Below, in pieces: positions 45,882-52,029 of a stretch of 64,000 bases of DNA. Below the pieces are notes generated by a model. It saw only the letters and a program-made list of their open reading frames with translations. It was not told where the DNA came from and did not search any database. Position numbers and translations under genes: made by a program. Within the stretch, counting starts at the first letter, position 1, and every line of letters begins with the position of its first letter. Origin of the DNA: Margaritispora aquatica (Eukaryota; Ascomycota; Leotiomycetes; Helotiales; Discinellaceae); contig VJWN01000020.1 of assembly GCA_007644065.1 (NCBI GenBank), forward strand, positions 425,874-489,873. Reading direction: 5' to 3'.

Positions 45882-45907
45882 CCATGGCTAGCCACGGTCA
45901 TCCACAG
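45882..45907. repeat. CCRYGG palindrome cluster 1
   Basis: Hexamers CCATGG, CCACGG and CCACAG start at 45882, 45892 and 45902, exactly 10 bp apart. The cluster lies just downstream of the stop codon of the left island gene. Confidence 0.8.
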
Positions 45908-45914
45908 CCCTCTT

Positions 45915-47283
45915 CTAGTACATGCTCTTGAAGAGCACGAGGTTAGCCTTGGCTTCAGGTGAAAATAAATCTGCTCCTTGGGGCATAACGGCCTTGTTTG
46001 CTGCATGTACACCTTCCAATTCGTCCAAGGCGGCGCCCAAACGTCTTGCAAGGTTGTCGAAGATCGTGAATTGGTACACAGGGTTGTGCATACCGAGGCT
46101 CTCGAAGGTAATGGGGAGGGTTGGTGCAGTGAGCTCATTCTCAGCAGTAACCAAGTTTGGGCTCCGAATAGTGAATAGCAAATACTTGCAGGCACGAACC
46201 AAAATGGCCGTGTTTCCAGACAGTGTGAGCTCGTGCTCCTTTGAGTCTCGAGCAAGGATGACATTGACTATCATTGACTCATCATCGCTGTCTGGAGTGT
46301 AAGCATCCTCAGCTACCAGAGCACCATTGGTGTCCTTATAGTCAAATGTGGGAAGAGTTTTGCGACTGGTCATGTGGAGATGGACAGGTGCACCTTGCTT
46401 CCGATGCTTATTTGATTGGTGCCACTCAGGTTGTTCCCATGGCTCGCCACGGGCAAGCGTGGCTTTCTCCTCCTTTCTCCAATCAAGCTCCACTTTGGAA
46501 GAGGGTGGGAGGTCCTCCGTACAAACACCGCAGCGAATCTTGGTGCGGACAGGACATTGGTCAGCAGGACCAAGCGGTAGAGGGAAGCGGCCTGGATGCC
46601 AACCCTCCTGGCCCAAACGACCGATGAAAGCAGTGATCTCTTCGAGCGTAACAACGTAAAAATCACCCTTACCCTCAACTTGAGAGAGCATTGCAAGGAT
46701 AGGGACCACCTGGAGCAATTCCTTCTTGGTATATCCGTAAATTCCACTCTTAGCCAGATGCTTGATCGTTGCTGCGAGGATACGTTCCGAGGCTTCTTGG
46801 TTTGGGATAGCTGTTCCGTCCAAGACTAGTTTGTCCGCCTGGTACTGTCTTGCTAATAACTTTGATGCACGGCGACCTTTACGGTCCTTGACACGAGCCT
46901 CTCTAGCTAATTGCTTAGCATCAGCAATAGCTCGATTAGGAGCCCATGTGGGAACATGGGGCACGAGGGCGACAGCTTGGAGCATGGCCCTATTGGACTC
47001 TGCCTTGGTGTTCTTTCGGAATTGCCTGAGCATGATGACGGATAATTCTAGCTATATCGTAAGCTTCTTGAACATGAGTATCCGTGGCTAACCATGGCTT
47101 ACCGTGGGTAGTTTTGTGGATTGGATTTGTGACGAAGGAGCGGTTTGAAAGTTGCTTAATTGTCCTAGTCCTAGATACCTCGTCAGTTACCGTACCTCGA
47201 TCTTTAGCACACTCAAAAGTGAATTTGGTAACATTGAAGCCCTTTTTTTTTTTAAAACCAAAAATAAAAAAATAGAAACTCAC
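45915..47283 (-). CDS. Recombinase-island protein A, function unknown
   Basis: The main exon is 47047-45915. Inside it a continuous frame from the Met at 47033 gives 372 aa. A probable intron 47048-47102 (GTAAGC donor, GCTTAC branch, CTAG acceptor) joins it in phase to an upstream segment ending at 47103 whose frame is open back to 47283. The true first exon is not resolved. The N-terminal part is basic and helical (EARVKDRKGRRASKLLARQ). The middle has a small Cys pair (CGVCTEDLPP) and the C-terminal third is acidic and strand-rich. I recognise no family. It shares strand with the recombinase gene 0.3 kb upstream, carries one CCRYGG cluster in-frame (translated as LARGEPW), and has another at its intron donor. 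This ties it to the same element. Confidence 0.55.
46437..46462. repeat. CCRYGG palindrome cluster 2 (in coding sequence)
   Basis: CCATGG, CCACGG and GCGTGG at 46437, 46447 and 46457. Translated in frame within island protein A as part of LARGEPWEQ. Confidence 0.8.
47082..47107. repeat. CCRYGG palindrome cluster 3 (at an intron donor)
   Basis: CCGTGG, CCATGG and CCGTGG at 47082, 47092 and 47102. On the gene strand the third unit spans the exon-intron border, so the repeat itself supplies the GT donor of the predicted intron in gene A. Confidence 0.8.
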
Positions 47284-47366
47284 TTGACTTCAGATTCCTG
47301 CCTTCATGCCTTTAAACTGAAGGCTAATACTGATCTGCTCAATGAAGATGATGATAGTACTAGACG

Positions 47367-47392
47367 CCGTGGCTGACCGTGGTGTGCCGTGG
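47367..47392. repeat. CCRYGG palindrome cluster 4
   Basis: Three CCGTGG units at 47367, 47377 and 47387, between genes A and B of the island. Confidence 0.8.
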
Positions 47393-47620
47393 AGACGTTG
47401 AAAGAAGTGGTGGTGGAGGAGAGATAAGTTGATGGGTGAGGTTGAGCGAAAGATTTTGATGATGGATGAAGTAAAGGTGAGTGCTGGAAATCAAAAAGCG
47501 AGTCAAAAGTAGGAAAGGGTCATGAATTCATTATGCTAGCGAGCAATCCTTGGTTTAACATACAACTTCCATAGTGCCGCAAAGCTGAACTCCTGTATCA
47601 AACCTCATCCCCTCATTCCC

Positions 47621-50210: not shown

Positions 50211-50417
50211 GATGATTAGGATGAAAGTCACAAAAATCAGTTTAGAGAGAGACAATTGGATGGAAATCACATATAAATCAGAGTATTAGACGGAAGGTAT
50301 GGAGTAATGGAGAGCTGGTGAAGGGAGTACAGTAGAGAGAACGAAGAGAGTGAGGGCGGTTGGGATGGTTCGGTAGAGATTGCGCTAGACAAATTGGGCT
50401 TCAGTACTGAATGTGGG

Positions 50418-50443
50418 CCATGGCTGCCCGTAGTCAACCATGG
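50418..50443. repeat. CCRYGG palindrome cluster 10 (between divergent genes)
   Basis: CCATGG, CCGTAG and CCATGG at 50418, 50428 and 50438. They lie in the 348-bp divergent promoter between the recombinase (start 50210) and gene C (start 50559). Confidence 0.8.
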
Positions 50444-50558
50444 CCAAGAACCACATCAATTCCCTCGATGATTCCGAAGTTGGTACACACTTAGTACAAA
50501 ATACTCAAGCTCATACGCATTCAATATACAATCATCCTGCAATTGATACATCTTCGCA

Positions 50559-51413
50559 ATGCCTGAGAATGGAGAGAATACAGATCCAGGGCTACCACTT
50601 CCACCAAGCGTGGATTCGACCCGGACCTCTCAGTTCCGGTCATTCCTCCCAGGATCAGCTGGACCGCACGTATGCTGATTCTAACTGGGCATATGGTTGA
50701 AAAGACACTAACTACCTATAATATATAGATGGACGTGCTTCTCTTCAACCAAGCGGCACTTGCACGACAGATGCAGGAGCTGAGGGCCGTGGTAGAGCAA
50801 CTAATTAACAAGAACGGCATCTCGACGCGACCAACCGCACCGCCAGCAGAGGTCGATATAGATGAATCTCATGAAAATGAGATTGAATGGGCTAGTAGGC
50901 GTTTCTTAAGTAAGGGGGGCGTGATGAAAAACATTCGAATCAAGAAACTTGGTCCTTTTGTAACGAAATGGGTACAAGGTAGGTAATCTTACCAAGTTTC
51001 GCCATGGCTAGCTATGGCTGGCCATGGCTAGCATTGCTTCTACTAACGTAAAGCTTGAAATAGGACTGAAGACCGATCAGCAAATGGCTGACAGTGCCAA
51101 AGATGCACTAGAAGCCTTGAATAGCGATCAACAAGCGACGATACATGTAACAATTGCGTCGCGCATCAATCCAAAGAAGAAACGTAAGGCGGCCCCCAAA
51201 GCAACGAAACCCAAAGGAGACAAGGGACCAAGCGCAAAAACTAAAGGGAAGAAGCGAATGGAGAGCAACGAAGATGAGGAGCAGGAGGAGGAAGAGGACG
51301 AGAATGAAGATGACCCGGAGGATAATACCAGCGAGCCCGAAGCGGAGGAGTCTCAATTAGACGATGAAGAAGAGAATATACAACCTGTAAAGAAGAGTAG
51401 AAGGACGATTTAG
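50559..51413 (+). CDS. Recombinase-island protein C: coiled-coil with basic and acidic tail
   Basis: Three exons: 50559-50669, 50729-50982 and 51032-51413, in phase, 248 aa. The first exon encodes a Pro-rich start (MPENGENTDPGLPLPPSVD). Residues 38-60 form a short coiled coil (MDVLLFNQAALARQMQELR). A middle domain ends with VMKNIRIKKLGPFVTKWVQ. The last third is a Lys-rich tract (PKKKRKAAPKATK, a good nuclear signal), then a long Glu/Asp run and a final KKSRRTI. It has no catalytic motif. It is transcribed divergently from the recombinase, so a DNA-binding or accessory role for the element is inferred. The second intron consists almost entirely of CCRYGG units and uses the CTAG of the last unit as its acceptor. 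Confidence 0.65.
51002..51027. repeat. CCRYGG palindrome cluster 11 (forms an intron)
   Basis: CCATGG, CTATGG and CCATGG at 51002, 51012 and 51022. They lie inside the 49-nt intron 50983-51031 of gene C; the CTAG after the third unit is the acceptor. Confidence 0.8.
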
Positions 51414-52029
51414 GTGTGTATTGCATGGGTAGCCACGGAGAGCCACGGAGAGCCACGGCTGCTTTTGAGATGGGACAAAGATACTTGGAACTTTCCATAT
51501 ACATGTGCTAGCAAGGACTATATCATAATTTGCTCTTTTACGCAATGAAAGCTACCTTTAGTAGACGATCTATATCTAAGGAAAAGGCTTTCTACGGGAT
51601 GCCATGTTGTTTTATAGGTGAAATGAACATTTGGGCATGGTATTCCTATGTTAAGTCAAGGAATAATACTTTTGGAGGATGATGGGTATTACAAGCATAC
51701 CTGCCATTGCTCGGATTTATCGAGGAACCCCTTATCCTACATAGTAGGATGTTTGAAACTTTAAATTTCGTTGTAATTTGTTGAAAGCAGAAGAGCTTTG
51801 TGGCGAAGGGTTGTTGGCGTGTTACGCGTTTAACGCGTTTAAAGTAACCAATTACCAACCAAGGCGCTTTACAGATAACGAAAATTTTAGAAAGGAACAA
51901 TGCCCCCCTCCAAAAAAAAGTATCAATCACTAGGAGGATCAATTTTTATACCTTCTTTTTACCTGGTGGAAAAAAAAAAAAAATATCAGCACACGTATTA
52001 TCATGCATAGGATATGTTTTCTCGTACAT
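51414..52029. other. Right flank of the recombinase island
   Basis: No gene. It contains cluster 12 and an inverted-repeat-like TTACGCGTTTAACGCG motif at about 51822-51837, followed by A-rich runs. It could include the right boundary of the element, but no direct repeat matching the left side was found. Confidence 0.4.
51423..51458. repeat. CCRYGG palindrome cluster 12
   Basis: Units GCATGG, CCACGG, CCACGG and CCACGG at 51423, 51433, 51443 and 51453, starting 9 bp after the stop codon of gene C. It mirrors cluster 1 at the opposite end of the island. Confidence 0.8.

What the first reader, a model, noticed from the sequence alone, without database searches (positions are those of the whole stretch)
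45882..51458. Twelve phased palindrome clusters scattered through a recombinase island
Seen directly: twelve clusters of three or four CCRYGG-type hexamers, units exactly 10 bp apart, starting at 45882, 46437, 47082, 47367, 47630, 48416, 48743, 49438, 49879, 50418, 51002 and 51423. They are spaced about 260-790 bp apart and confined to the three-gene island; the first and last lie just outside the outermost stop codons. A palindrome on each helical turn puts all dyads on one face of the DNA, which suits binding by an oligomeric protein. Inference: the element may mark its own DNA with these sites, perhaps for the recombinase or the basic protein C. I know of no described fungal element with this feature.
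Basis: partly seen in the sequence, partly recalled or inferred. Interest (0 to 1): 0.88.

Follow-up and report, generated by a model that had tools for sequence, protein, structure and literature searches.

The report
Phased palindrome barcode in recombinase island
A three-gene island in what looks like a fungal genome, carrying a mobile-element type recombinase, has twelve evenly spread clusters of CCRYGG palindromes exactly 10 bases apart; close matches to such clusters were found nowhere else in that genome, which suggests that the island marks its own DNA for a protein to find.

Summary
All 12 clusters lie where stated, each matches three CCRYGG at 10-bp period in at least 16 of 18 positions, and none occurs elsewhere in the window. 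In the 42.36-Mb assembly all 11 places with at most one mismatch lie in this island; periods 9 and 11 have none there. Spacing is more even than random (CV 0.34, P 0.00025), and 28 of the island's 29 exact CCRYGG sit in clusters. Gene B is a DUF3435 tyrosine recombinase; A has no detected relative, C no family above cut-off in the pieces scanned. Seven clusters are non-coding (two inside introns), five coding. Two coding clusters show no length change against most relatives covering them and codon shuffles rarely recreate them, so selection on DNA is likelier than insertion. Best reading: dispersed binding arrays by which an element-encoded protein recognises the whole element, perhaps to keep its chromatin open as VANC does for VANDAL transposons. 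Binding, reader and function are inferred.

The parts
45882..45907 (.). cluster 1, 3 units, 7 bases beyond the stop codon of gene A
46437..46462 (.). cluster 2, 3 units, in coding sequence of gene A
47082..47107 (.). cluster 3, 3 exact units, upstream of the modelled start codon of gene A
47367..47392 (.). cluster 4, 3 exact units, between genes A and B
47630..47655 (.). cluster 5, 3 units, last codons of gene B
48416..48441 (.). cluster 6, 3 units, coding, variable linker of protein B
48743..48768 (.). cluster 7, 3 exact units, coding sequence of gene B; no gap against 4 of 6 relatives
49438..49473 (.). cluster 8, 4 units, wholly inside the 76-nt intron of gene B
49879..49904 (.). cluster 9, 3 units, coding, conserved stretch of gene B; no gap against the 4 relatives that cover it
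50418..50443 (.). cluster 10, 3 units, between the divergent genes B and C
51002..51037 (.). cluster 11, 4 units (the fourth weak), wholly inside the 85-nt second intron of gene C
51423..51458 (.). cluster 12, 4 units, 9 bases beyond the stop codon of gene C
45915..47033 (-). gene A, 372 aa, no homologue or family found
47621..49414 (-). gene B exon 2: most of the DUF3435 recombinase domain and a cysteine/histidine-rich tail
49415..49490 (-). gene B intron (model)
   Evidence: relatives align through the joint without a gap
49491..50210 (-). gene B exon 1; whole protein 837 aa
50559..50669 (+). gene C exon 1 (model from splice signals and frame)
50729..50978 (+). gene C exon 2 (model)
51064..51413 (+). 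gene C exon 3: basic stretch, acidic stretch, KKSRR near the end (by eye); whole model 236 aa

Best explanation
The clusters are dispersed DNA-binding arrays. Each offers three or four palindromic CCRYGG units on one helical face to an oligomeric or multi-finger protein, most likely encoded by the island itself (recombinase B with its possible zinc-finger tail, or the basic/acidic protein C). Because they tile the whole island about every 500 bp and close matches occur nowhere else in the genome, the protein can recognise this DNA as self over its full length. I think the likeliest role is to keep the element's chromatin open or otherwise protect it from host silencing, in the manner of VANC proteins on VANDAL transposons. 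Shown: motif, period, confinement, even spacing, signs of selection at DNA level. Inferred: that a protein binds, which one, and the anti-silencing role (about half of my confidence in the binding reading).
For: 11 of 11 places at <=1 mismatch in 42.36 Mb lie in the island, and periods 9 and 11 have none there. A near-constant footprint of 3-4 units: 28 of 29 exact CCRYGG in the island are in clusters, with 1 isolated where about 3 were expected. Even tiling: CV 0.34, P 0.00025; smallest gap P 0.0007 (null is uniform placement of 10 inner points, cluster length ignored). DNA-level selection: with protein B fixed and codons reshuffled, 0 of 1000 shuffles reach its 4 clusters at >=16/18 (mean 0.43); at >=17 it is 1 and at 18 it is 11 of 1000. 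Cluster 48743 matches 18 of 18 though protein identity to P0001 there is 2 of 9 against 41 of 77 in the flanks, without a gap. Non-coding excess: 7 of 12 against 22% of the span, P 0.007, or 5 of 10, P 0.049, without the two end clusters that define the span. B looks intact: R206, K247, Y358, R361, H383 and Y394 are invariant in the 7 aligned sequences (the catalytic reading is mine).
Against: No binding data, no second copy, no DNA of a relative. VANC motifs are mainly non-coding, while 5 of 12 clusters here are coding. The codon test is weak for gene A (43 of 1000 at >=16/18, 204 of 1000 at >=15/18) and weaker for B at >=14/18 (22 of 1000). The zinc-finger reading is weak: whole-profile E 0.0016 to YY1, but its single stretches have E 0.21 and 81, and Pfam lists no zinc finger in B at E <= 1 or in the relatives at E <= 0.01. 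Both structure models are poor (mean pLDDT 38.6 and 53.2). Back-translation of six relatives gave one weak sign. The two other DUF3435 loci lack the motif.
Confidence: 0.45

Rival explanations
1. Recombinase accessory sites: the arrays bind the DUF3435 recombinase or a partner to build the excision complex or circle, or to prevent self-insertion (target immunity).
For: A recombinase with conserved residues sits inside, and clusters 1 and 12 bracket the gene set just beyond the outer stop codons.
Against: Tyrosine recombinases act at short core sites at the ends (general knowledge); ten internal arrays through genes and introns are not needed for that. No terminal direct repeat stands out: the longest direct match between the flanks examined is 11 bases, A-rich.
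Confidence: 0.2
2. The clusters are copies of a small mobile or slippage-born repeat that happened to settle in this island.
For: Tandem arrays of 10-bp units holding CCATGG occur in unrelated viral contigs; cluster 6 sits at a 2-residue gain against P0001 and P0002 in a variable linker.
Against: No place at <=1 mismatch elsewhere in the genome; two coding clusters show no gap against 4 of 6 and 4 of 4 relatives; spacing is too even; spacers differ (22 different 4-mers in 27 gaps).
Confidence: 0.08
3. Plasmid-like upkeep: the arrays are partition or operator sites, like dispersed KorB sites, for a circular extrachromosomal form.
For: Twelve dispersed sites beside a co-encoded basic protein; RK2 also has 12 KorB sites (title of a cited reference seen).
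Against: No replication or partition family recognised in the proteins and pieces scanned; the island is chromosomal here.
Confidence: 0.08
4. Sequence pairing without protein recognition: the 6-conserved/4-free pattern lets clusters pair duplex to duplex, as in homology sensing for RIP.
For: With 6-bp units, a 10-bp periodicity (6H-4N) was the most effective of those from 8 to 15 in one Neurospora assay (passages of PMC4858203); the clusters are 6-conserved/4-variable.
Against: That assay varied 100 bp beside a 500-bp region; clusters here are 26-36 bp and their units vary between CCATGG, CCGTGG and CCACGG. Attracting RIP would harm an element.
Confidence: 0.06
5. Host transcription-factor sites: the island has been domesticated and the clusters serve host regulation.
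For: Clusters 3, 4 and 10 lie upstream of genes; [quoted passage not shown]
Against: A host factor would be expected to have sites elsewhere; at <=1 mismatch there are none. Clusters at gene ends and in coding sequence are not promoter-like.
Confidence: 0.08

Closest known systems
VANC proteins and VANDAL21/VANDAL6 motif arrays (Arabidopsis)
   Same: Short motifs at high density peculiar to one element family, found in introns and upstream regions, read by an element-encoded protein; sparse motifs outside are not associated with the protein (passages of PMC5735166).
   Different: Plant MULE-type elements (recalled), not recombinase elements; motif YAGTATTAY arrayed in one orientation, mainly non-coding and spread by tandem repeat formation. 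Here the motif is palindromic, locked to 10 bp, in 26-36-bp clusters, also coding, and evenly tiled.
Starship captains / DUF3435 tyrosine recombinases
   Same: Gene B matches PF11917 above its cut-off (39.5 against 25.8 bits).
   Different: Starships are 15 to about 700 kb with a leading 5' captain (passages of PMC12134995); here three genes in about 5.6 kb, B divergent from gene C, no ends or cargo defined. The passages I read mention no internal phased arrays.
Cryptons
   Same: Tyrosine-recombinase DNA elements first discovered in fungi (passage).
   Different: Recombinases very distantly related to captains (same passage); no internal arrays known to me (recalled).
KorB operators of plasmid RK2
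   Same: About a dozen sites for a plasmid-encoded protein (reference title and passages).
   Different: Bacterial ParB-type system; no 10-bp phased CCRYGG sets known to me (recalled).

Membership tests
DUF3435 tyrosine recombinases | PF11917 match above the curated cut-off | tested here: met
   39.5 bits against 25.8, residues 194-494 of protein B
DUF3435 tyrosine recombinases | conserved R, K, YxxR, H, Y residues (set named from recall) | tested here: met
   R206, K247, Y358, R361, H383, Y394 invariant in 7 aligned sequences
Starship | captain is the leading 5' gene of a bounded cargo-carrying element of 15 kb or more | tested here: inconclusive
   three genes in 5.6 kb and no ends found; a larger element was not excluded
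VANC-type anti-silencing system | motif at high density peculiar to the element | tested here: met
VANC-type anti-silencing system | element-encoded protein homologous to VANC | tested here: inconclusive
   A: no Pfam or NCBIfam family and no homologue. C: scanned only as two open-frame pieces, none above cut-off (one piece); C was not searched in the protein database
VANC-type anti-silencing system | protein binds the motif and removes silent marks | not testable with these tools
   needs EMSA or ChIP and chromatin data
Crypton | Crypton-type rather than captain-type recombinase | tested here: inconclusive
   the only Pfam family listed for B at E <= 1 is DUF3435; no Crypton recombinase was compared

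The most novel reading that the evidence does not exclude
A recombinase element in a fungus carries an element-wide, helically phased self-recognition barcode, evolved by point substitution through coding, intron and intergenic DNA, that an element-encoded protein reads to shield the whole element from silencing or RIP: a fungal counterpart of VANC arisen independently.
Probability: 0.25. Interest if true: 0.92.

Novelty: new variant of a known kind. Interest (0 to 1): 0.72.

Why it matters
Fungi silence and mutate mobile DNA strongly. An element that writes a protein-readable code through its own genes would show how such elements tell self from host and would add a second, independent case to the plant VANC systems. 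The motif makes the idea directly testable, beginning with one gel shift.

Tried and rejected
Chance was rejected. A mobile short repeat is unlikely. Related phased arrays elsewhere: one MAG contig named Okeania with an exact CCAYGGCTAG array (a narrower pattern) and 9 viral stretches with three CCATGG at 10 bp. Scanned in the parts held at >=16/18, 9 of these 10 loci have one group and one (L040) has two. In four whole records out of these ten, at <=2 mismatches, G001 has matches at two separate places, G002 at three, G003 and G004 at one each. None of these approaches twelve. A scan of viral contigs for relatives of B matched 23 stretches by pattern, none confirmed.

Motif sought through protein relatives: back-translating the six relatives of B, only P0001 (Oculimacula yallundae) has a stretch that fits with one mismatch (P 0.015 against 200 shuffles, not corrected for six proteins; the other five have none at <=1). 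P0002 has a mild excess at <=3 mismatches (P 0.025). Calibration: protein B is recovered (2 stretches at 0 mismatches) and protein A at 1 (P 0.025). I count the P0001 sign as weak. A profile search for further relatives (E <= 1e-10) returned five of the six and nothing new. Structures of A (single sequence) and of B exon 2 (7 sequences) are of low confidence, so no fold search was made. Ends and target-site duplication were not found.
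Full report
Observation. I re-measured the pattern from the sequence. Every one of the 12 stated starts is exact. Scoring each place against three CCRYGG at 10-bp spacing (18 positions; hits within 40 bases joined), the window holds 12 groups at 16 or more, all between 45882 and 51458, and none outside; over periods 6 to 24 no other period gives any in the island at that level, though period 20 gives one at 15. 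Shuffles of the island that keep dinucleotides gave none at 16 in 200. I count a fourth unit in three clusters (49438, 51002, 51423); 28 of 39 units are exact: CCATGG 12, CCGTGG 8, CCACGG 7, CCGCGG 1. The spacer leans to CTAG but is loose: 22 different 4-mers in 27 gaps.

Whole genome. The window lies in an assembly of 42,362,790 bases in 49 contigs. At zero or one mismatch, 11 of 11 places lie in the island; at up to two, 15 of 36. The other 21 are scattered; they exceed the reversed-pattern control (7) but are like other periods of the same hexamer: 19 at period 11 (its control 19) and 39 at period 9 (its control 59), none of them in the island. The tool warns that simple repeats and withheld stretches can be missed.

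Arrangement. Gaps between starts are 555, 645, 285, 263, 786, 327, 695, 441, 539, 584 and 421; their variation (CV 0.34) is lower than in random placement (P 0.00025, 20,000 draws, ends fixed, cluster length ignored). I saw no common phase between clusters over long distance (remainders listed, no test made). Of 29 exact CCRYGG in the island, 28 are in clusters; the density outside predicts about 3 isolated ones and there is 1. Seven clusters are non-coding, five coding. Cluster 8 lies wholly in the 76-nt intron of B and cluster 11 wholly in the 85-nt second intron of C. These introns are models from splice signals and reading frame.

Genes. B (837 aa) matches DUF3435. Six relatives passed E 0.001 among the 7997 candidates scored from a database of 5.8 billion proteins: Oculimacula yallundae 46%, Exophiala mesophila 35%, Piccolia ochrophora 33%, Lithohypha guttulata 40% over about half the length, and two unnamed ones. 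Pfam lists DUF3435 for five of these six; for the Lithohypha protein it lists only a sub-threshold hit to another family. Residues that I read as the catalytic set are invariant. The C-terminal part has cysteines and histidines shared by several relatives, and the family profile touches YY1 zinc fingers (E 0.0016 for the chain, single stretches 0.21 and 81), but Pfam lists no zinc finger in B: a possible, unproven C2H2 domain. A (372 aa) matches nothing. C (236 aa as modelled) was scanned only as two open-frame pieces, with weak hits below cut-off. That the host is a filamentous ascomycete is inferred from these relatives and the short introns.

Selection on DNA. Holding protein B fixed and reshuffling its codons, none of 1000 shuffles reached its four clusters at 16 of 18 or better (22 of 1000 at 14). 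For protein A, 43 of 1000 reached its one cluster at 16, 2 of 1000 at 17, 204 of 1000 at 15. Cluster 7 (48743) aligns without a gap to four of six relatives while identity to P0001 is 2 of 9 against 41 of 77 in the flanks. Cluster 9 (49879) aligns without a gap to all four relatives that cover it and sits on a stretch better conserved than its flanks (7 of 9 against 32 of 73). Cluster 6 is in a variable linker with a 2-residue gain against P0001 and P0002; cluster 5 lies in a tail that P0001 lacks. So two of four B clusters show no sign of insertion, and the picture is of a motif built by substitution where the protein allows it. Cluster 9 may owe part of its motif to the conserved protein.

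Copies and ends. DNA of 45800-47600 and of 51460-52028 matched only itself, and protein C found only the island; the DNA of gene B was not searched as such. The left flank 43000-45880 contains a dispersed repeat (about 43545-43780) with 39 further listed places, a lower bound. Two other DUF3435 matches, on C23 and C29, have one and four stop codons inside the match, no CCRYGG pairs at 10 bp in the loci of about 3.5 kb, and no recurring 10-bp palindrome pairs of the kind tested in 10 kb. No convincing end repeats were found.

Mechanism. A palindrome on each turn in sets of three or four, with almost none outside the sets, suits a protein of fixed oligomer size or several fingers. Confinement to one element suggests a reader encoded by it. 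Even tiling through genes, introns and gaps suggests that the whole length must be within reach of a bound site, which fits chromatin opening or self-marking better than end recognition. The nearest studied system I know is VANC: YAGTATTAY at a density unique to VANDAL21 loci, in introns and upstream regions, bound by VANC21 in vivo and in vitro (passages of PMC5735166), with loss of silent marks (abstract of PMC10398659). It works alike in my reading, but membership is not shown: another element class, another motif type, no VANC homologue seen. A second, less likely reading is direct duplex pairing: in one Neurospora RIP assay 6-bp units at 10-bp period were the most effective periodicity (passages of PMC4858203), the same geometry as here, though over far longer stretches.

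Literature. Searches for DUF3435 with Crypton and tyrosine recombinase (3 papers), Starship with at least three of captain, DUF3435, palindrome, binding site (0 papers), phased palindromes, 10-bp, transposable elements and fungi (15 of 61 listed), Starship captains with zinc finger or motif (7 papers) and CCATGG with palindromic, tandem, mobile element, binding motif (12 of 43 listed, one of these holding CCATGG) listed no report of such a feature. I saw listings for these, and passages of PMC12134995; subscription papers are not covered.

Verdict. The feature is real, specific to this island in its genome, and probably under selection as DNA; its function is inferred. The missing pieces are DNA of a relative and one binding assay.

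Noticed in passing
window 52030-52117, minus strand: A tRNA-Thr (AGT) gene lies about 570 bases from the last cluster, its 3' end facing the island. An insertion beside a tRNA could be considered, but no shared end repeat stood out between the flanks examined.
   Followed up: partly
window about 43545-43780: Dispersed repeat of about 230 bases, 74-86% identical, with 39 further listed places in the genome (a lower bound).
   Followed up: no
L014 (C23) and L015 (C29): Two other DUF3435 matches in the genome, with stop codons inside the match and no phased CCRYGG pairs.
   Followed up: partly
L040, positions 3143 and 4476: A viral contig (phage-like to my eye) with two separate 18/18 phased CCRYGG clusters 1.3 kb apart, the first with a fourth unit; no other place at <=2 mismatches in its 45 kb.
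   Followed up: partly
G002 (record of L039), 3022-3102, 4630, 7122: Viral contig of 15 kb with phased CCATGG groups at three places, one of them exact.
   Followed up: no
   Followed up: partly
window 45870-51470: RIP-type dinucleotide ratios of the island (TA/AT 0.80, (CA+TG)/(AC+GT) 1.25) lie between those of three host gene stretches (0.61-0.68, 1.35-1.48) and of the left flank (0.90, 1.15).
   Followed up: no
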